The notes beneath the pieces were generated by a model, which had not been told where the DNA came from, did not search any database, and saw only the letters and a program-made list of their open reading frames with translations. From Rhizobium sp. L43 (GTDB taxonomy: Bacteria > Pseudomonadota > Alphaproteobacteria > Rhizobiales > Rhizobiaceae): DNA of 64,000 nucleotides. The first letter of the stretch is position 1. Each line of letters begins with the position of its first letter. This document shows, piece by piece, positions 39,742-51,959 of this stretch. Where the stretch lies: the NCBI RefSeq assembly GCF_002531725.1, contig NZ_NWSQ01000001.1, forward strand, positions 310,001 to 374,000, in the 5' to 3' direction. The translations under genes and the position numbers were made by a program.

Positions 39742-40652
39742 GGTGTGATTCCTTCGACGAAGGGTTGCCGGATTTGAATGACCTCGACGGTCCTGCCGTC
39801 GGTCTTGCTTCTGACGTACAAAACATTGGCCTCGACGCTGCCGCGCCGGCCGTAAAGGGCGGTGACCCTGCCGCGCTGAGCCGGCGGCGTCTCGATGGTG
39901 AAGCCGTCGCGGGCAAGCAGATCGGCGCGCTGATCGGACCAGCGCGCGGCAGACAGCGTGCCCTTCGACACGACCGTGCGCGAGGTGTGGCCCTTGTCGC
40001 GATCGCCGATATCGCTCAGCACCTCGACCCCGGCCGGCGGACGCAGCGACATCGGCAGCTTGCTGACATCGGCAGGCGCCGCGAAGGCCGGCAGCGTCGA
40101 GGCGACATCGTCGAAGCGGCTCATCAGCACCTCTGTCGTCGGCGCATCGGCGGGGCGGCGGATCATGATCGAAACGCCGGGGATCGGCGCTCTTGCCGAC
40201 GGATTTGCCGGGTCCTGCCGTCTGAGATAATCGAGGGCGGCCTCGCCGTCGCCGTCGAAGAAGCGGACGACCACGGCAAGGTCGTCGCGGATGCGGCTTA
40301 CCTTTGGGACGATCAGCATATTGGCGGCGATGACGGCGGTCAGCTCTTGCCTGTCATTGCTCTTGGGAAGGGCAGGCCTGGTATTGACGGCCAGCACCCG
40401 CAGCCATTCGTCGGTGATATCGGAAATGCTGCGATCGCTCTGGTAGGGCGTGAACTCCAGCGGCTGGCCGTTGATGACGAGATCGCGCGGCGCGCGCTCC
40501 GGCGCGCCGAGGATGCCGGCCAGCATCGAATTCAACGTCGCCCTCAGATCCTTGTAGACCTCCGCACGGCCCGGTGTCGCCATGGTGACAGCGAGCCCGA
40601 TGACCAAGGCCAAGCCAGTGAGATGAAAGGAGATGCGCGCGCGCTGTCCCAT
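39738..40652 (-). CDS. Secreted hypothetical protein of the Tad operon
   Basis: 304 residues from ATG 40652, two bases after the upstream stop. The signal peptide ends near TPGRAE. The rest alternates short strands and helices without a recognised domain; I see no secretin repeat. It occupies the place where a periplasmic partner such as CpaC/CpaD would be expected. Overlap with cpaB and strict operon spacing make it a pilus component. Function unknown. Confidence 0.7.
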   Translation of the reverse strand: MGQRARISFHLTGLALVIGLAVTMATPGRAEVYKDLRATLNSMLAGILGAPERAPRDLVINGQPLEFTPYQSDRSISDITDEWLRVLAVNTRPALPKSNDRQELTAVIAANMLIVPKVSRIRDDLAVVVRFFDGDGEAALDYLRRQDPANPSARAPIPGVSIMIRRPADAPTTEVLMSRFDDVASTLPAFAAPADVSKLPMSLRPPAGVEVLSDIGDRDKGHTSRTVVSKGTLSAARWSDQRADLLARDGFTIETPPAQRGRVTALYGRRGSVEANVLYVRSKTDGRTVEVIQIRQPFVEGITP

Positions 40653-45167: not shown

Positions 45168-46315
45168 TGAAAGCCGTTTCCGACGATGCAGCCGAACAGG
45201 CAACCTTCCAGGTCCTGACCCGAGCGCTGGACAAGTTGCTCGGACCGATCCGTTTCCTCCTCGAAGATCCGAGCGTTTCCGAAATCCTGATCAACGGGAC
45301 ATCCGACATCTTCGTCGAAAGGCGCGGCAAGCTCGAACGCGCCGATGCGCGTTTCGCCAGCCGCGAGGACCTGGAATCGGCCGCACGCAGCATCGCGCAA
45401 TTCTCCGGCAAACGGCTGACGCCGGAGGAGCCGAGCGTCGAGGCCCGTTTGCCGGATGGCTCACGCGTGCAGATGATCCAGCCGCCTGCCGCCCGCACCG
45501 GGCTCTGCATCTCCATTCGCCGTTTTCTGAAGGAACATCGCAGCATTCGCGATCTCGTTACCCAGGGCAGCCTGACCGAGGAGTCGCTGTCGCTGCTGCA
45601 GGCGGCCGTCGGGCTACAGAAGAACGTCATCATCTCCGGCGGCACCGGCACCGGCAAGACGACGATGCTAAACGCGCTGTCGGAAGCCTTTGCCGACCAC
45701 GAGCGCATCATCGTCATCGAGGACACGTCGGAACTGCAGATCCGCAAGGAGCACGTCGTCTATCTCGAAGTGACGAAGCCCGACCGTTTCGGCCGCGGCG
45801 GCGCCAGCATCCGCGACCTGTTCCGCTCATCGCTGCGCATGCGGCCTGACCGCATCATCGTCGGCGAATGCCGCGGCGGCGAGGCGCTCGACATGATCCA
45901 GGCGATGACCTCGGGCCACAGCGGCAGCCTTTCGACGGTGCATGCGAACACGCCCTACGACGCGCTGCACCGGCTGGAAACCTTAGCGCTGATGTCCGAC
46001 ATCGATATGCCGCTGCGGCCGCTGCGCGCCCAGATCGCCTCGGCGGTCGACGTCGTCGTGCAGATCGCCCGCTTCAAGCGCACCGGCAGACGCCGGGTGA
46101 TCGAGATTTCCGAGATCAAGGGCCTCAACAATGACGGCCAGTATATCGTCGAAAGCATCTACAAGCTCGAGGGCGACGGCCATTCCAATTCCGATGGCGC
46201 ATTGCTGTGGACCGGCGTCGTCCCGAGCTTCGCCACCGACGCGATCGAAGAGCTGCAAGGCGCGGAGCGATCGGAGTGGATGAAGGCCGAAGCCGCGGTG
46301 CGGGCAACGGCTTGA
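45167..46315 (+). CDS. Second CpaF/TadA-type secretion ATPase
   Basis: 382 residues from ATG 45167; a longer upstream extension in the same frame overlaps the small gene and lacks a ribosome binding site. Walker A GGTGTGKTTMLN, Asp/Glu box IVIEDTSELQI, Walker [15 protein letters not shown] and His box GHSGSLSTVHAN are all intact. It lacks the FHA extension of the first ATPase. Having two CpaF-type motors in one cluster, transcribed divergently, is unusual. It could drive retraction, a different substrate, or be part of a chimeric locus. Confidence 0.88.
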   Translation: MKAVSDDAAEQATFQVLTRALDKLLGPIRFLLEDPSVSEILINGTSDIFVERRGKLERADARFASREDLESAARSIAQFSGKRLTPEEPSVEARLPDGSRVQMIQPPAARTGLCISIRRFLKEHRSIRDLVTQGSLTEESLSLLQAAVGLQKNVIISGGTGTGKTTMLNALSEAFADHERIIVIEDTSELQIRKEHVVYLEVTKPDRFGRGGASIRDLFRSSLRMRPDRIIVGECRGGEALDMIQAMTSGHSGSLSTVHANTPYDALHRLETLALMSDIDMPLRPLRAQIASAVDVVVQIARFKRTGRRRVIEISEIKGLNNDGQYIVESIYKLEGDGHSNSDGALLWTGVVPSFATDAIEELQGAERSEWMKAEAAVRATA

Positions 46316-46389
46316 AATCTATTGGCGGACGCCAACTGCATGATGCATTCGAGGGAAGGGAAGGCAAACCTGGTTGCCTTCCCCGGTGT

Positions 46390-47808
46390 TTACCGGCGCT
46401 TGTTGCGCCAAGGCGCGTTCTTCTGCCAGTCGCCGGCCATGATGCTCCCGTAGGGGATCACCTCGTCGACCACATCGGCGAGGCCGTAGTGCTCGATCTG
46501 CGCCCGCACGTTCGCAGCACTCTTGTAGGCACTCGGCAATTCCGACACATCGGCGAAACCGGAGAAGAACCGCGCGTCGAGACCGCTTGTTTCCTTCTCC
46601 AGAATAGCCGCGATGTTGTTCGGGCTCAGACCGCGCGAATCCGCCCCATATTCCGCAGACAGCTGCCTCATATGTGCGCTGCGCGAAAAGTTACGGCCGG
46701 CGCCATGCGGCGAGAAGCCGAGGCCATGGGCAGCGTTCGAGCCGCGAACGATCAGGATCGGTTCCGCCATATTGAGCGGAATGATGGTCAGATCGGTCGC
46801 GTCATGCGCCCAGTTGTCGAAGGCAGGGGTCGCACCCTTTCCGTGGTAGAACAGCCCGTCCGACTTCCGGAAGACGAAATTATGCTCGTTCCAGAAGCGG
46901 TCCGCGACCTTGGCCGAGAGCCTTTCCGCCGCCATGTCGTGAAGGACATAGTGGTTTTCTTTTGTCCACTGGCGGATCGTCTGCAGCGCCGACCAGTAGA
47001 AGTCACCTTCCTCGGTATCCGCCGGAATCCAGGCATTTTCCCGATGCGTCTCGGGCGAGATGCGTTCCCGAAACTGGTTGGCGACCTTCATGCCCTTGTC
47101 GTAGAGCCGCGCTCCCGGTGCCCGCGATCCATGATGGGTCACAAGCGCGGTTTCACCGGTCGATTTCATCGTTCCGACATAGGCGAAATGATTGCCGTCG
47201 CCCTGGGTGGCGAAATGCTCGATGCCGGCGCTCAGCACGCCGTCGCGCAGATAAGGATTCTGCTCGAAGGCCGAAAGCGTCGCCTCGGAAGGCTTCAGCT
47301 GCGCGCCGCGCGGACGACCGCCGGGACCGAAATGCGTCACGGCATGCACGGCATCCAGAAGCGACTTCGGGTCTGTGCCGGGAAAGATCGAGATCGCCAT
47401 GGAGCAGCAGATATCGGCCGAATGCATGCCGGGATGGATCGCTTCGGACGCGACTACGCCGCCGACCGGGATCGTTCCCACCGGGCCAGCCGGGCAAGCG
47501 TCCGGCATGATCGCCGCGGATCGGACGACGGGTGTGCGCACCAGCGCGCGCATCGTCGCATTGACCTTCTCGACATTGTCCTGCTCAAAGGCGTTCTCGG
47601 CACGGATATTGGAATAGATCTCGATATCGTTATCGGCCCTCAAGGCAAGCGTCGGCCCGGGCTGGAAGGCTTTTGCCGCTTCCAGCGCATCCGCCACCGA
47701 ACCACCCTTGCTCAAAACCGCGTTGGCCGCGTCGAGAGCCGGGCGAAACCACTTCCCCTGGCTCATGCCGGCATCGATCAAATCCTGTCCGCTCATTACC
47801 GCTATCAT
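46390..47808 (-). CDS. rtcB: RtcB RNA ligase
   Basis: 472 residues from ATG 47808 (ATG 47796 also possible). It is an RtcB family RNA ligase that joins 2',3'-cyclic phosphate or 3'-phosphate ends to 5'-OH ends through a GMP-His intermediate. Visible motifs: the metal-Cys region reads HSADICCSMAI (usual form D.GCGM), GDGNHFAYV, THHGSRAPGA, and the guanylylated His in SPHGAGRNFSR. The altered CCSM motif places it in a divergent RtcB subgroup. It is the last gene of the rsr-Y RNA-rtcB transcript. Confidence 0.92.
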   Translation of the reverse strand: MIAVMSGQDLIDAGMSQGKWFRPALDAANAVLSKGGSVADALEAAKAFQPGPTLALRADNDIEIYSNIRAENAFEQDNVEKVNATMRALVRTPVVRSAAIMPDACPAGPVGTIPVGGVVASEAIHPGMHSADICCSMAISIFPGTDPKSLLDAVHAVTHFGPGGRPRGAQLKPSEATLSAFEQNPYLRDGVLSAGIEHFATQGDGNHFAYVGTMKSTGETALVTHHGSRAPGARLYDKGMKVANQFRERISPETHRENAWIPADTEEGDFYWSALQTIRQWTKENHYVLHDMAAERLSAKVADRFWNEHNFVFRKSDGLFYHGKGATPAFDNWAHDATDLTIIPLNMAEPILIVRGSNAAHGLGFSPHGAGRNFSRSAHMRQLSAEYGADSRGLSPNNIAAILEKETSGLDARFFSGFADVSELPSAYKSAANVRAQIEHYGLADVVDEVIPYGSIMAGDWQKNAPWRNKRR

Positions 47809-47860
47809 TGTCTTTTCTGCGTCTGCAGTCCTTCTTGTTCCGTTGCTTCTCTTCACACCA

Positions 47861-47958
47861 CCTGGGCGACGAGCATTGCCGGAGATCTCTCTCGCCGCAC
47901 GCATTCCATGATCATGGCGCGATGCGGCCCCTGTAGTCACCGGTGGCATTCGCCCAGG
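47861..47958 (-). ncRNA. Y-RNA-like unit 5 (hairpin module, no tRNA mimic)
   Basis: The closing helix is CCTGGGCGA/TCGCCCAGG. The shared GAATGC and ACTACA elements and the 3' CTCGTCG are present, so it belongs to the same family. The interior lacks T- and D-arms. Instead GCCGCA...TGCGGC encloses the palindrome CCATGATCATGG, an ordinary hairpin. It ends 52 bases before the rtcB start. Confidence 0.75.
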
Positions 47959-47971
47959 GCCTTTCTTCATC

Positions 47972-48112
47972 ACCCCGGCGACGAGATGTGGCAGGACAAT
48001 TTACTGAGCTACGCGCTCCCTTCGGAAGCGCGGGATGATTTGAACACCCGACCTGCCCGCCGGAAATCCGACGGGCCGCTCTACCTGTAGTCCTGCCGGC
48101 ATTCGCCGGGGT
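47972..48112 (-). ncRNA. Y-RNA-like unit 4 (tRNA mimic permuted in the D-loop)
   Basis: Closing helix ACCCCGGCGA/TCGCCGGGGT; second helix GGCAGGAC/GTCCTGCC. The tRNA-like part reads, 5' to 3': GGTAGAGC (3' side of a D-arm), a 9-bp arm GCCCGTCGG-ATTT-CCGGCGGGC in anticodon-arm position, a T-arm with TTCAAAT loop, an acceptor-like stem closed by a GAA loop (CGCGCTTCC/GGGAGCGCG), then TAGCTCAG (5' side of the D-arm). All four tRNA arms are present but the chain is opened in the D-loop. Confidence 0.85.
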
Positions 48113-48138
48113 AGTTCGTTCCTGCAGGGCAGGAAGTT

Positions 48139-48267
48139 GCAGCGGCGACGAGGGTGGACGAAACCGGATGGCCCCGCTCGTGCCAGAGAGCGTATGCCCA
48201 GGAGGAGTCGAACCTGCCAGACCATCCAACGTTGGCGGCTGTAGTTCCGTCCGGCATTCGCCGCTGC
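48139..48267 (-). ncRNA. Y-RNA-like unit 3 (degenerate tRNA mimic)
   Basis: Closing helix GCAGCGGCGA/TCGCCGCTGC (10 bp); second helix GGACGGAAC/GTTTCGTCC. The inner module keeps a T-arm (loop TTCGACT, one mismatch in the stem) and a D-arm-like GCTC-TCTGGCAC-GAGC, but the acceptor stem is reduced to a few bases (TGGGCATAC). GAATGC and ACTACA are present. Confidence 0.82.
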
Positions 48268-48275
48268 ATTCGGCT

Positions 48276-48385
48276 ATGGCGACAACTGTCCGGGAAACAG
48301 CTTGCTCTACCAACTGAGCTACAGGACCAGGTCCTGGCGAGAATCGAACTCGCGACACAGATGTAGTTCCCCATGCATTCGCCAT
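48276..48385 (-). ncRNA. Y-RNA-like unit 2 (tRNA mimic with closed acceptor)
   Basis: Closing helix ATGGCGA/TCGCCAT; second helix GGGGAAC/GTTTCCC. The module order is T-arm (GCGAG-TTCGATT-CTCGC), acceptor-like hairpin CAGGA-CCTGG-TCCTG, then a D-arm TAGCTCAGTTGGTAGAGCA identical to that of ordinary tRNAs. There is no anticodon arm; the Y stem occupies its place. Confidence 0.87.
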
Positions 48386-48399
48386 GTCATTTCATTCGT

Positions 48400-48535
48400 C
48401 CGTGACGACGAGGTGTGGTGAAACAGCCTGCTCTATCCGCTGAGCTACGGGTCCATAAACTGGGGGACCCGACGGGATTCGAACCCGCGACCTGGAGATT
48501 TAACGATCTGTAGTTTCATCCGGCATTCGTCACGG
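48400..48535 (-). ncRNA. Y-RNA-like unit 1 (permuted tRNA mimic with encoded CCA)
   Basis: Closing helix CCGTGACGA/TCGTCACGG; second helix GGTGAAAC-type/GTTTCACC with one bulge. Inside, a small hairpin AGAT/ATCT is followed by a T-arm (GCGGG-TTCGAAT-CCCGT), then 3' acceptor CGGGTCC, CCCA, a six-base spacer, and 5' acceptor GGACCCG, then D-arm GCTC-AGCGGATA-GAGC. The acceptor halves pair over 7 bp. The discriminator-plus-CCA before the spacer is what a mature tRNA 3' end looks like. It starts about 50 bases after the rsr stop. Confidence 0.88.
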
Positions 48536-48584
48536 CTCCCCGCGCCGGTCACGGTGGCGCGAGGGTATTGCTTCTGCGAGCCCG

Positions 48585-50141
48585 TCAGAGCGCGATCGCC
48601 TCGATGGCTTTCACCCAGCCATCCGCTCCCTTGCTATTGGCCGCGAAAGCCGTGATCACTCCGTAGACGGCATCCGAGAAGCCGCCGATATTGAGCACGT
48701 CTTCCCGCGTCGGCGCCTGGGTCGTGGCATGGGGCTGGATGTCGAGGCAGACCAGCTTTGCAGCCGGGTTGACCCGCTTGATCCTGGCCCATTCCGTCAT
48801 GACAGCAGTCGGCTGTCCGCTCCCGCGCGCATCCACCCAGGACTCATTGTCCGAGATGAACACCACGAGATCGACCTTGGCCTTCTCGTTTGCCAGCCTC
48901 TTCAGCGGTGCGGAGCAGTTGGTTCCGCCGCCGCCGATTTTCGCCAGCTTGCCGGCATTGGTCATCACCGAATCCCGCTTGTTGAGGCTGACATGCACCA
49001 CGTCATTCTCGAACGGCAGCACCCGCGCCTTCGGGTTGCGCTGCAGGAACGCCGCGGTCATCAGACCGGCGACATCGATGCAGCGAACCGAGGACGTCGC
49101 ACCCTTGCGGTAACCGGTCACGGGCGAACCCATGGAACCCGACACGTCGGGGCACAGCACCACATTGCCCGTCAGGGACGGCACGTTGGCGATGGCGATA
49201 TCCATCGCCTCCTGAAGCGCATCCCGCACGGCATGGGGAAGCTGGCCGTCGACCATCTTCCACGCCATCATCAGCTGATAGGGGAAGACCTTTGCCTTGC
49301 GGATTTCCTCCGGATCGGCAAGCCGCGCCGCCAGCGCCTCGGCAAAACCCTCGACCTCGAACACGCCGTTGCGTGCAAAGGTGTTGAGGTTCTGCCGCAC
49401 CATCTGCCAGCCGCCCTTGCGGGCGATTTCAACCCAATGCTCCCGCGTCAGCGGCAGCGAGGTCAGCATCTGGAACGGGACGTCCGGCACTGGCACCGTC
49501 TGGTCACGCCGGAACGCTTCCAATGCCTTGACGAGCTCAGGCAGTGCCGCGTAGTCGTGCGGCTTGCTGATCGCCCAGGCATAAAGCGCCTTGCGCTCCT
49601 CCGTCGCCGGCTTCGGATGCACCATGCGGATGACGTCGGCGAGCGAAGGATCGTTTCCGACCATCGCACGCAGGATCTGCTCGGTGCTCGCCCGTTCGAG
49701 CCACGCCTGCACCACCTTCTTCGGGCGTGTGCCGAGGGACTTCCGACCCGTGGCGCCGGAGCGCATGACCTGCACGAAGCCGCGCAGCATCTTGCCGCTC
49801 TTCACCACCCGCGGGAATGCACGGGCGAAGGCGTCGCTCTGAAGGCTGGAGAGCATGGCGAGCAACGTCACCGGCATGTCCTTCATCTGCCCCTTCTCAG
49901 CGGCGTAAACAGCCACCTTGGCGAGAAATTCCGGCTCGACCTGAAGGGCAAGCGTCTTTATCGCGTCGAGCTGCTCGGCCCCATCCGCATAGAAGGTGCC
50001 GTTGAAGGTGCCGGTCACAGCATATTGCGCCAGCGCCTCGCGCGGCGTCAGCTGGTAGGCCGGAGCCGCTTCATGATTTTTTGTATCCGTTCCCGGAAGC
50101 AGTTTCCCGAGATAGGTTTTGAAGATCGCCTTGTTGACCAT
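48585..50141 (-). CDS. rsr: Rsr, bacterial Ro60 (TROVE-domain) RNA-binding protein
   Basis: 518 residues from ATG 50141 with AGAGG upstream; an earlier ATG at 50165 lies at or before the predicted transcription start. The N-terminal TROVE/HEAT ring (LTPREALAQYAVTGTFNGTFYADG, DMPVTLLAMLSSLQSDAFAR) is followed by a von Willebrand A domain with a full MIDAS: DVSGSMGSP, a Thr in GGGGTNCS and Asp in ISDNESW. Ro60 proteins bind Y RNAs on the outer surface and RNA 3' ends in the central hole, aiding RNA quality control. Its Y RNA partners are probably the five units encoded downstream. Confidence 0.92.
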   Translation of the reverse strand: MVNKAIFKTYLGKLLPGTDTKNHEAAPAYQLTPREALAQYAVTGTFNGTFYADGAEQLDAIKTLALQVEPEFLAKVAVYAAEKGQMKDMPVTLLAMLSSLQSDAFARAFPRVVKSGKMLRGFVQVMRSGATGRKSLGTRPKKVVQAWLERASTEQILRAMVGNDPSLADVIRMVHPKPATEERKALYAWAISKPHDYAALPELVKALEAFRRDQTVPVPDVPFQMLTSLPLTREHWVEIARKGGWQMVRQNLNTFARNGVFEVEGFAEALAARLADPEEIRKAKVFPYQLMMAWKMVDGQLPHAVRDALQEAMDIAIANVPSLTGNVVLCPDVSGSMGSPVTGYRKGATSSVRCIDVAGLMTAAFLQRNPKARVLPFENDVVHVSLNKRDSVMTNAGKLAKIGGGGTNCSAPLKRLANEKAKVDLVVFISDNESWVDARGSGQPTAVMTEWARIKRVNPAAKLVCLDIQPHATTQAPTREDVLNIGGFSDAVYGVITAFAANSKGADGWVKAIEAIAL

Positions 50142-50176
50142 GACGGCACCTCTTGTTGGGTTCATGCCAGATACAT

Positions 50177-50192
50177 TTCAAGACGCGTGCCA
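50177..50192 (-). promoter_or_regulatory. Sigma-54 promoter of rsr-Y RNA-rtcB
   Basis: On the minus strand TGGCACG-N4-TTGAA matches the -24/-12 consensus (TGGCACG-N4-TTGCW) except for one base in the -12 box. It lies 36 bases before the rsr start. It fits activation by RtcR, a sigma-54 enhancer-binding protein encoded divergently. Confidence 0.8.
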
Positions 50193-50217
50193 GTTTGGAG
50201 AAAAGAGCGAGGCATAC

Positions 50218-50290
50218 ACGAAACTTTCGTACATCTCTTTGTTTTAAAAAGAGAAATTTTTACGCCACATCGAACGCAATCATGAATTGC
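50218..50290. promoter_or_regulatory. Candidate RtcR upstream activator sites
   Basis: Three inverted repeats lie between the sigma-54 promoter and rtcR: ACGAAA-C-TTTCGT (50218-50230), TCTCTTT-N7-AAAGAGA (50234-50254) and GCAAT-N5-ATTGC (50276-50290). Enhancer-binding proteins use such palindromes 80-150 bases from the promoter. The AT-rich tract 50300-50340 probably holds the rtcR promoter. Confidence 0.5.
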
Positions 50291-50351
50291 GAAAATCCGT
50301 ATCCAGATTATATTATCGCATATTATATCACTTTATAATTCTGGATAAGAC

Positions 50352-51959
50352 ATGAAGCGCCGCGTCGCCATCAGCATATTGGGAACCACCCTGGATGCAG
50401 GGAAATGGGAAAACCGCTGGAGTCGCTGGCGGCCCAGTGTCGCGCTTTGCCAGCAGCCGGGCCTGTTCATCGACCGGCTGGAACTGATCCACGACAACCG
50501 CTCGCAAGCTCTCTGTCACCGTATCGTTGCCGACATCGAAACCGTGGCGCCGGCGACGGAGGTGCGGAGCAACGTCATCAACTTCCGGGACCCCTGGGAT
50601 TTTTCCGAGGTCTATACGAGCCTCAGGGACTTTGCCCGCAATTACAACTTCGACCCCGACACGGAAGACTATCTCGTCAACATCACCACCGGCACCCATG
50701 TGGCCCAGATCTGCTGGTTCCTGCTGACCGAAGCCCGCATCATTCCCGGCCAGCTGCTGCAGCTCTCGCCGCCGCGCGAGCGGGAACCGGAGCAGGATTT
50801 CGCCGGCACACATCGGATCATCGACCTCGACCTTTCCCGCTATGACGAGATCGCCAAGCGCTTCGCTTCCGAGCGGGAAGACGCCGCCTCTTTCCTGAAA
50901 TCGGGAATTTCGACCCGCAACGCCGCCTTCAACAGAATGATCGACGAGATCGAAAGGGTGGTGATCCGCTCGACGGCGCCCGTTCTCCTGACCGGCCCGA
51001 CCGGCGCCGGCAAGTCGCAACTTGCCCGCCGGATCTACGAGTTGAAGAAGAGCCAGCGCAAGGTCAGTGGCCCCTTCATCGAGGTCAACTGCGCGACGCT
51101 GCGCGGCGACCAGGCCATGTCTACCCTGTTCGGCCATGTGAAAGGCGCCTTTACCGGCGCTGCCGGCGAGCGTGCCGGCTTGCTCAAGTCCGCCGACAAA
51201 GGCGTGCTGTTCCTCGACGAGATCGGCGAACTCGGCCTCGACGAACAGGCCATGTGCCTGCGCGCGATCGAGGAAAAGAAGTTCCTGCCCATGGGCGCCG
51301 ATCGGGAAGTGACGGCGGACTTTCAGCTGCTGGCCGGCACCAATCGCGATCTTGGCGAGGATGTCCGAAAGGGAAGGTTCCGCGAAGATCTCTATGCCCG
51401 CCTGAACCTCTGGACGTTCCAGCTGCCGGCCCTGCGCGAGCGCAAGGAGGACATCGAGCCCAATCTCGACTTCGAGCTGAGGCGTTATCTGGAACGAGAA
51501 GGCGAAAATGTCACCTTCAACAAGGAAGCACGCCAACGCTATCTTGCTTTCGCAACCGGCCCGCAAGCCGTCTGGAGCGCCAATTTTCGCGACCTGTCGG
51601 CTTCGGTGACCCGCATGGCGACCCTCGCGCCGCATGGGCGCATCACGACCGACGTCGTTGACGATGAAGTCCGACGGCTGAATGCGTTTTGGCGCAGCTC
51701 AAGCGACGACGGCAGGGTGGATCTGATCCTTGAAGAGGTGCTGGGTGCAGAGACTGCCGCTCGCCTCGATCGCTTCGACGCAGCACAGCTTGCCGCGGTT
51801 CTGCACACCTGCCGTCAACATGCAACGGCAAGCGCGGCGGGCAGAGCCTTGTTTGCGATCTCACGCTTGGAGAAAAAGAGCAGCAACGACGCCGATCGCC
51901 TGAGCAAATATCTCGCGCGCTTCAGTCTCAGATTCGAGGATATCAAGAGACCTGAATAA
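50352..51959 (+). CDS. rtcR: RtcR, sigma-54-dependent activator of RNA repair
   Basis: 535 residues. The N-terminal ~170 residues (MKRRVAISILGTTLDAG, ITTGTHVAQICWFLLTEAR) are the CARF-type Rossmann sensor known for this family. The AAA+ core has Walker A GPTGAGKS, the sigma-54 contact loop KGAFTGA and Walker B LFLDEIGEL, then an Arg-finger region. The C-terminal part is helical and should contain the DNA-binding HTH. It is inactive until the sensor binds an RNA-damage-related ligand, then drives rsr-Y RNA-rtcB. Confidence 0.92.
   Translation: MKRRVAISILGTTLDAGKWENRWSRWRPSVALCQQPGLFIDRLELIHDNRSQALCHRIVADIETVAPATEVRSNVINFRDPWDFSEVYTSLRDFARNYNFDPDTEDYLVNITTGTHVAQICWFLLTEARIIPGQLLQLSPPREREPEQDFAGTHRIIDLDLSRYDEIAKRFASEREDAASFLKSGISTRNAAFNRMIDEIERVVIRSTAPVLLTGPTGAGKSQLARRIYELKKSQRKVSGPFIEVNCATLRGDQAMSTLFGHVKGAFTGAAGERAGLLKSADKGVLFLDEIGELGLDEQAMCLRAIEEKKFLPMGADREVTADFQLLAGTNRDLGEDVRKGRFREDLYARLNLWTFQLPALRERKEDIEPNLDFELRRYLEREGENVTFNKEARQRYLAFATGPQAVWSANFRDLSASVTRMATLAPHGRITTDVVDDEVRRLNAFWRSSSDDGRVDLILEEVLGAETAARLDRFDAAQLAAVLHTCRQHATASAAGRALFAISRLEKKSSNDADRLSKYLARFSLRFEDIKRPE

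What the first reader, a model, noticed from the sequence alone, without database searches (positions are those of the whole stretch)
47861..48535. Array of five tandem Y-RNA-like genes between rsr and rtcB
On the minus strand, five units of 98-141 nt share GAATGC-N7/8-ACTACA near the 5' end and (except a near match in unit 2) CTCGTCG near the 3' end. Helix 1 sequences all differ yet pair perfectly in each unit (for example GCAGCGGCGA/TCGCCGCTGC versus CCTGGGCGA/TCGCCCAGG). Helix 2 also covaries (GGCAGGAC/GTCCTGCC versus GGGGAAC/GTTTCCC). Unit spacing is 8-27 nt. That is compensatory evidence for real structured RNAs. Tandem bacterial Y RNAs beside rsr are known, but an array of five with this much internal diversity looks notable.
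Basis: partly seen in the sequence, partly recalled or inferred. Interest (0 to 1): 0.95.

Follow-up and report, generated by a model that had tools for sequence, protein, structure and literature searches.

The report
Two differently permuted tRNA-mimic Y RNAs
Between two RNA-repair genes of a Rhizobium-type bacterium lie five tandem units that resemble bacterial Y RNAs; two have the layout already known for such RNAs, while a third is predicted to fold into a whole tRNA cut open at a different place, so the cell likely presents tRNA look-alikes in two orientations to its tRNA-handling enzymes.

Summary
The array is real: five units at 47861-48535 (minus strand) between rsr and rtcB share the stem motifs described. 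Its size is ordinary; one relative (L034) shows eight plus-strand model matches. What is unusual is unit 4 (47974-48111). Units 1 and 2 have the known YrlA layout (T arm, capped acceptor, D arm), a tRNA opened at the anticodon. Unit 4 has all arms of a cloverleaf (D arm, anticodon-position hairpin, 5-nt variable loop, T arm, hairpin-capped acceptor) opened in the D-loop, with the Rsr-type stem inserted between G15 and G18. A model built from 36 such units finds 39 copies (3 of them new) in 29 of 42 sources, well apart from all other matches (103.8 bits or more versus 52.1 or less). The arms covary. With the pieces put back in tRNA order, ARAGORN of 45 as tRNAs, against 0 of 45 in native order and 0 of 450 shuffles. 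In 15 loci tested, Rfam's YrlA model called no class-D copy. Rsr binding and a role in tRNA damage or repair are inferred from studied relatives. I rate it a new structural variant of a known RNA kind; whether the 2014 survey of bacterial Y RNAs already described it could not be checked.

The parts
48585..50141 (-). rsr (Ro60/Rsr orthologue); the open frame reaches 50165, but the annotated start of the homologue in Rhizobium etli pA (CP001075) corresponds to 50141
   Evidence: Pfam vWA_Ro60 3.6e-20, TROVE 1.6e-5; PDB 2nvo Rsr 2.9e-25; start
50178..50192 (-). sigma-54-type promoter-like element TGGCACGCGTCTTGA upstream of rsr
   Evidence: sequence; the pattern is found upstream of rsr in 39 of 41 homologous loci; consensus recalled, function not tested
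48400..48535 (-). Yrl unit 1: anticodon-permuted tRNA mimic (T arm, 7-bp acceptor, NCCA, linker, D arm)
   Evidence: Rfam YrlA 60.2 bits, below the gathering score; similar to tRNA-Arg 45-77 then 1-27; CCA kept in 34 of 41 regions
48276..48385 (-). Yrl unit 2: canonical YrlA
   Evidence: Rfam YrlA 95.7 bits, gathering 69
48138..48268 (-). Yrl unit 3: T-like and D-like arms in YrlA order, no clear acceptor stem
   Evidence: 36 homologous units found by pattern, 26 of them aligned, RNAalifold with 5 doubly changed pairs of 37
47971..48113 (-). Yrl unit 4: D-loop-permuted complete tRNA mimic (class D)
48078..48081 (-). unit 4, D-stem 3' strand GAGC (tRNA 22-25), preceded by GGTA (18-21)
48055..48076 (-). 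unit 4, anticodon-position hairpin (7 bp or more, no conserved anticodon)
   Evidence: 7 of 7 pairs with double changes in the family
48050..48054 (-). unit 4, variable loop AGGTC (tRNA 44-48)
48033..48049 (-). unit 4, T arm (5 bp, loop TTCAAAT)
48012..48032 (-). unit 4, acceptor stem next to the T arm, closed by a GAA loop
   Evidence: 8 of 9 pairs with double changes in the family
48006..48011 (-). unit 4, U8-A9 and D-stem 5' strand GCTC (tRNA 8-13)
47861..47958 (-). Yrl unit 5: long hairpin, no T or D arm
   Evidence: 18 homologous units, 3 doubly changed pairs of 22; helix 2 not found by RNAalifold
46390..47796 (-). rtcB (RNA ligase); start 47796 or 47808, as two annotated homologues differ
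   Evidence: Pfam RtcB 3.9e-27; starts
50352..51959 (+). rtcR, divergent sigma-54 activator with RtcR sensor domain
   Evidence: Pfam RtcR 3.3e-80, Sigma54_activat 2.5e-50

Best explanation
The stretch between rsr and rtcB holds five Y-RNA-like units, of which units 1 and 2 have tRNA elements in the order of a tRNA opened at the anticodon and unit 4 has them in the order of a full cloverleaf opened in the D-loop; all five would be bound by Rsr through their shared stem and likely hold tRNA-shaped handles, in two different orientations, out to tRNA-handling enzymes. Shown here by sequence: the order of the elements, consensus spacing as in tRNA, conserved tRNA core nucleotides, covariation in the arms, and the link to rsr. 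Inferred: the fold itself, transcription from the sigma-54-type promoter when RtcR senses cleaved tRNA, processing into separate RNAs, Rsr binding by helix 1, and recruitment or competition at tRNA-binding proteins (PNPase, tRNA-modifying enzymes, anticodon nucleases). In unit 4 the acceptor is predicted to be closed by a hairpin and the anticodon-position loop is not conserved, so it should be neither charged nor decode. Its conserved face is the elbow, from which the Rsr stem would leave. In canonical YrlA the stem leaves at the anticodon end and the elbow is free. The two classes should therefore suit different partners.
For: Unconstrained RNAalifold of 36 class-D units gives the D-loop-opened cloverleaf, 20 of 37 pairs doubly changed. 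With the named structure 94.6% of cells pair and 21 of 41 pairs are doubly changed, 0 of 500 shuffles as high and all slid structures lower. With 49 units, 36 of them the same, 28 of 41 pairs and 196 cells against 47.6 in shuffles. Unit 4 alone has this fold as its minimum, z -7.34. Core features U8, A14, G15, G18G19, A21, Y48, G53-C61, T54, T55, C56, A58: each present in 43-45 of the 45 units that parse, of 53 tried; the parser favours them, but of 1060 shuffles 278 parse and none reaches 8 of 11. Restored to tRNA order, ARAGORN of 45; native units 0 of 53, same letters in native order 0 of 45, shuffles 0 of 450. The model built from these RNAs also scores genuine tandem tRNAs at 36-43 bits. 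Similarity to the genome's own tRNAs: unit 1 to 45-77 then 1-27; unit 4 to 18-61 and 47-76, then 7-17. Context: the 15 of 397 genomes with a hit of 68.8 bits or more are all among the 29 with an Rsr match at E 1e-84 or better, and the best copy lies 119-669 nt downstream of rsr on the same strand.
Against: No transcript, binding or structure data. 8 of 53 class-D units fail the parser and one more (L034:6455) parses in a poor register; three distant ones lack a normal T-loop. 13 of 42 sources have no class-D copy (one, L035, ends just after rsr), so it is dispensable. The shuffle control ignores relatedness, and the alignment behind one search was fitted to the model. BLAST matches of unit 4 to single tRNAs are weak (E 0.005, 0.014 and 0.74). 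Restoring tRNA order needed removal of helices 1-2 and part of the D-loop and an added ACCA tail, and 13 of 45 were still not called. rtcA, important for induction in Salmonella (PMC7790460, passages), was not found in this genome, so the sensing route may differ.
Confidence: 0.62

Rival explanations
1. All five are ordinary YrlA RNAs of one architecture; the D-loop permutation of unit 4 is an over-reading of a generic multibranch fold.
For: Rfam YrlA aligns to unit 4 end to end at 31.2 bits; units share helix 1 and, more or less, helix 2.
Against: In that alignment helices 1-2 match while the T and D arms fall on broken pairs. A class-D model separates cleanly: 39 copies at 103.8 bits or more, next 52.1. 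Rearrangement controls 32/45 versus 0/45 and 0/450.
Confidence: 0.06
2. Unit 4 is mainly a decoy: a capped, uncleavable tRNA look-alike that occupies an anticodon nuclease or another tRNA-attacking enzyme, rather than a tether between Rsr and an effector.
For: PMC7790460 (passages read) raises competitive inhibition of the anticodon nuclease as a possibility for YrlA. Unit 4 has an anticodon-position hairpin and lies in an operon of the tRNA-damage type.
Against: The anticodon-position loop has no conserved sequence or length, which fits poorly with mimicry of a nuclease target; helix 1 is kept as for Rsr binding.
Confidence: 0.2
3. The array is a cis element or debris: tRNA-gene fragments between two genes that only space, process or stabilise the rsr-rtcB transcript.
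For: tRNA-like sequence in tandem; variable unit number among relatives; a conserved CTGC-N4-GCAG pattern before rtcB shows that cis elements may exist here.
Against: Compensatory changes in all six helices of class D and near-invariant core bases; separate classes each conserved. In other bacteria YrlA is described as an RNA that works in a complex with Rsr and PNPase (PMC8394870, passages read).
Confidence: 0.1

Closest known systems
YrlA (Rfam RF02553; Salmonella YrlA structure 6CU1)
   Same: Beside rsr, long basal stem, tRNA-like module with T, acceptor and D arms; unit 2 is called by Rfam and unit 1 aligns end to end below the threshold.
   Different: YrlA has the order T, acceptor, D, a tRNA opened at the anticodon. 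Unit 4 is opened in the D-loop, has an anticodon-position hairpin and a 5-nt variable loop, and scores 31.2 against a gathering score of 69.
Bacterial Y RNA as circular permutation of tRNA (ARTEMIS, PMC11472068, passages read)
   Same: Circular permutation relative to tRNA is documented for 6CU1.
   Different: A second cut point is not mentioned in the passages read.
rsr-yrlBA-rtcBA RNA repair operon of Salmonella (PMC7790460, passages read)
   Same: rsr, Y RNAs, rtcB, divergent RtcR.
   Different: Two Y RNAs there, five units here; rtcA not found in this genome.
Permuted tRNA genes of red algae and two-piece alphaproteobacterial tmRNA (recalled, not tested)
   Same: 3' part of a tRNA encoded before its 5' part.
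   Different: Those are processed into translation RNAs; in unit 4 the acceptor is capped and the anticodon-position loop is not conserved.

Membership tests
YrlA RF02553 | Score above Rfam gathering (69 bits) | tested here: not met
   Met by 1 of 5 units: unit 2 (95.7); units 1 (60.2) and 4 (31.2) below, units 3 and 5 not listed
YrlA RF02553 | tRNA module in order T arm, acceptor, D arm | tested here: not met
   Met in units 1-2; not met in unit 4, where the two D-stem strands enclose all other arms
bacterial Y RNA (wider sense) | Encoded next to an Ro60 orthologue | tested here: met
bacterial Y RNA (wider sense) | 5'-3' end basal stem with conserved motifs | tested here: met
   helix 1 in 5 of 5 units
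bacterial Y RNA (wider sense) | Binds Rsr and tethers an effector | not testable with these tools
   needs pull-down
tRNA | Cloverleaf spacing and tertiary-core nucleotides | tested here: met
   45 of 53 class-D units parse, 44 of these with 9 or more of 11 core features
tRNA | Linear order recognised as a tRNA gene | tested here: not met
   ARAGORN 0 of 53 native units; 32 of 45 only after reordering
tRNA | Anticodon loop and free CCA end | tested here: not met
   loop length and sequence vary; acceptor closed by a predicted hairpin
tmRNA RF00023 | Score above Rfam gathering (47 bits) | tested here: not met
   16.3 bits for a match that overlaps unit 1

The most novel reading that the evidence does not exclude
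Bacterial Y RNAs have made tRNA mimics by two different circular permutations, one cut at the anticodon and one cut in the D-loop before position 18, and both sit side by side in one Rsr array. Class D is a separate RNA family with all four tRNA arms, tethered to Rsr by its elbow. Both cuts can be read as different registers on an ancestral tandem tRNA repeat, and they would give Rsr two tRNA handles that present opposite faces to enzymes.
Probability: 0.7. Interest if true: 0.75.

Novelty: new variant of a known kind. Interest (0 to 1): 0.62.

Why it matters
Why Ro60 proteins carry several Y RNAs, and what the tRNA-like part is for, are open questions. An array that offers the same mimic in two connectivities is a natural experiment: partners that need a free elbow should prefer the canonical units, and partners that need free anticodon and acceptor ends should prefer class D. 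It also gives a case of two circular permutations of one RNA fold, and a ready covariance model for a class that Rfam's YrlA model did not call in the 15 loci tested.

Tried and rejected
Regex and pairing scans for units merged or missed some units and overcounted starts (one search gives 6 for the window, true 5), so no array-size table is claimed. The first strict parser accepted 37 of 56 entries (one of them, L052, in a false register) and 2 of 2800 shuffles; four of the 19 that failed (L060-L063) are other Yrl units, not class D. It was replaced. A scan of all loci by the first parser gave 50 of 13,476 windows, not sorted into known copies and others. Hits of model R1 below about 65 bits were not counted as class D: those I looked at were other Yrl units or adjacent tRNA-Ile/tRNA-Ala genes, but most low hits were not opened. 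The genome searches with R1 used stricter filters that lose weak matches. No terminator-like or sigma-70-like site was found on the minus strand of 46300-50500. tmRNA, TB6Cs1H1 and Erse hits are below gathering and were set aside. Papers asked for by id but not held: among them the 2014 bacterial Y RNA survey, the YrlA structure paper and two reviews, so prior description of class D in them is unchecked. A guessed id was an unrelated paper. Paper searches; two searches listed only 15 and 10 of 31 papers each.

Full report
What was checked. They lie between rsr and rtcB, with rtcR divergent, and a sigma-54-type pattern stands upstream of rsr in 39 of 41 homologous loci. The nearest named relatives of Rsr are Rhizobium species (97% identity). 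Near matches to 47800-50200 lie in 48 plasmid records, 45 Rhizobium and 3 Shinella. In the two records that I opened nothing is annotated over the array, but that gene table leaves out RNA genes, so this says little.

Classes. Rfam's YrlA model calls unit 2 above threshold, unit 1 below it, and unit 4 weakly; units 3 and 5 are not listed. Forty-one rsr loci were fetched; one, L035, ends just after rsr, so regions were read in the window and 40 loci. Unit-1-type copies were collected by pattern in 39 places, unit-3-type in 36 and unit-5-type in 18. I aligned 28 of 39, 26 of 36 and 18 of 18, leaving out near copies and the long-linker forms. RNAalifold found 7 of 33, 5 of 37 and 3 of 22 pairs doubly changed. 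For unit 5 it found helix 1 and the hairpin but not helix 2.

Unit 4. Thirty-six copies were collected by pattern from 41 regions and aligned. RNAalifold, without guidance, gave helix 1, helix 2, a 4-bp D stem, 1 nt, a hairpin, 5 nt, a 5-bp T arm with a 7-nt loop, an acceptor stem directly next to it, 2 nt, and the other D strand. These are the spacings of tRNA; single copies vary (two nt before the hairpin, or a shorter acceptor). The pair counts beat all 500 shuffles on all five measures and beat the slid structures; the shuffles do not allow for relatedness. The D stem is GAGC/GCTC in 40 of 45 parsed units, GCGC/GCGC in three, GCGC/GCGT and GAGC/GCTT in one each, and three distant unparsed copies read GAAC/GTTC by eye (printed). 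The anticodon-position stem has double changes at 7 of 7 pairs and the acceptor at 8 of 9, though 10 and 18 cells are unpaired at the worst pair of each. The window's own unit 4 folds this way by itself with z -7.34.

Specificity. Model R1, run over the window and 41 loci, finds 39 copies at 103.8 bits or more in 29 of 42 sources. Thirty-six of these were in the training set and three were new. The next match scores 52.1. At Rfam's gathering score, 15 of the 41 loci gave 10 YrlA calls in 9 loci, none on a class-D copy.

Spread. Of 397 genomes of the order, 45 reach E 0.001, but only 15 reach 68.8 bits. All 15 are among the 29 with an Rsr match at E 1e-84 or better, and the best class-D copy lies 119-669 nt downstream of rsr on the same strand. 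Copies from ten of the 15 parse as D-loop-permuted tRNA (two of these through L009 and L043, whose contigs have the same lengths); the best copies of G283, G247, G121, G198 and G150 do not parse and were read by eye. In 385 genomes of the class, one genome of another order, G438, has a copy at 83.7 bits that parses. In 398 genomes of the phylum no further genome above 60 bits appeared.

tRNA nature. Of 53 units, 45 parse; 44 of the 45 keep 9 or more of 11 tRNA core features. The parser rewards these features; under the same scoring 278 of 1060 shuffles parse and none reaches 8. Put back into tRNA order, 32 of 45 are called tRNA by ARAGORN and 13 are not. Native units give 0 of 53, the same letters in native order 0 of 45, shuffles 0 of 450. 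The anticodons called vary and many are irregular. R1 also scores adjacent tRNA-Ile and tRNA-Ala genes in rRNA operons, which fits the idea that such RNAs correspond to a window on a tandem tRNA repeat. BLAST to tRNA genes of this genome (38 ARAGORN entries with repeats, from 30 of 43 tRNA places) shows unit 1 similar to tRNA-Arg 45-77 (85%) then 1-27 (93%), and unit 4 to tRNA-Val 18-61 (67%, E 0.014) and tRNA-Met 47-76 (80%, E 0.005), then 7-17 (11 bases, E 0.74). The unit 4 matches are weak.

Known and new. The circular permutation of a bacterial Y RNA (6CU1) against tRNA is in print (PMC11472068, passages read). In the YrlA matches here that cut is at the anticodon. A second cut, in the D-loop, was not seen in what the searches listed (titles and starts of abstracts) or in the passages read of PMC7790460, PMC8394870, PMC11472068, PMC13355120 and PMC7824862. 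The main survey of bacterial Y RNAs was not held, so priority is open.

Mechanism. A review says that YrlA binds Rsr by its basal stem and PNPase by its tRNA-like domain and is a substrate of DusA and TruB (PMC8394870, passages read), and the Salmonella operon is activated when tRNA fragments accumulate (PMC7790460, passages read). By extension, unit 4 would be held by Rsr through a stem that leaves the D-loop. As encoded it should be neither charged nor decode. Which partner it serves is not known. The tether reading and the decoy reading are separable by experiment.

Noticed in passing
window 47817-47833, minus strand: A hairpin-like pattern AAGGACTGC-N4-GCAG (N6 in one) lies between the array and the rtcB start in 41 of 41 regions, the window's included. 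It could be a translation control of rtcB.
   Followed up: partly
window 48461-48464, minus strand (unit 1): Unit 1 type keeps discriminator plus CCA after the acceptor 3' strand in 34 of 41 regions, like an encoded tRNA 3' end; if RNase P and Z cut the linker, a CCA-ended acceptor would form.
   Followed up: partly
L026:5027-5176: Rfam calls a tRNA (34.7 bits, gathering 29) that spans two neighbouring Yrl units, a likely source of misannotation.
   Followed up: no
L027:5622-5791 and L040:5622-5792: Unit-1 type with an insert of about 40 nt in the acceptor linker.
   Followed up: no
whole genome G000: No rtcA (PF01137) match at E 0.001 in this genome although rtcR and rtcB are present.
   Followed up: partly
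window 39868-39954: ARAGORN tRNA-Phe call overlapping open reading frames; the RF00005 search of the genome does not list it, so it is probably false.
   Followed up: partly
phage collection: 380 phage records hold an Rsr relative by tblastn, mostly Mycobacterium (195) and Streptomyces (126) phages; whether they carry class-D RNAs was not tested.
   Followed up: no
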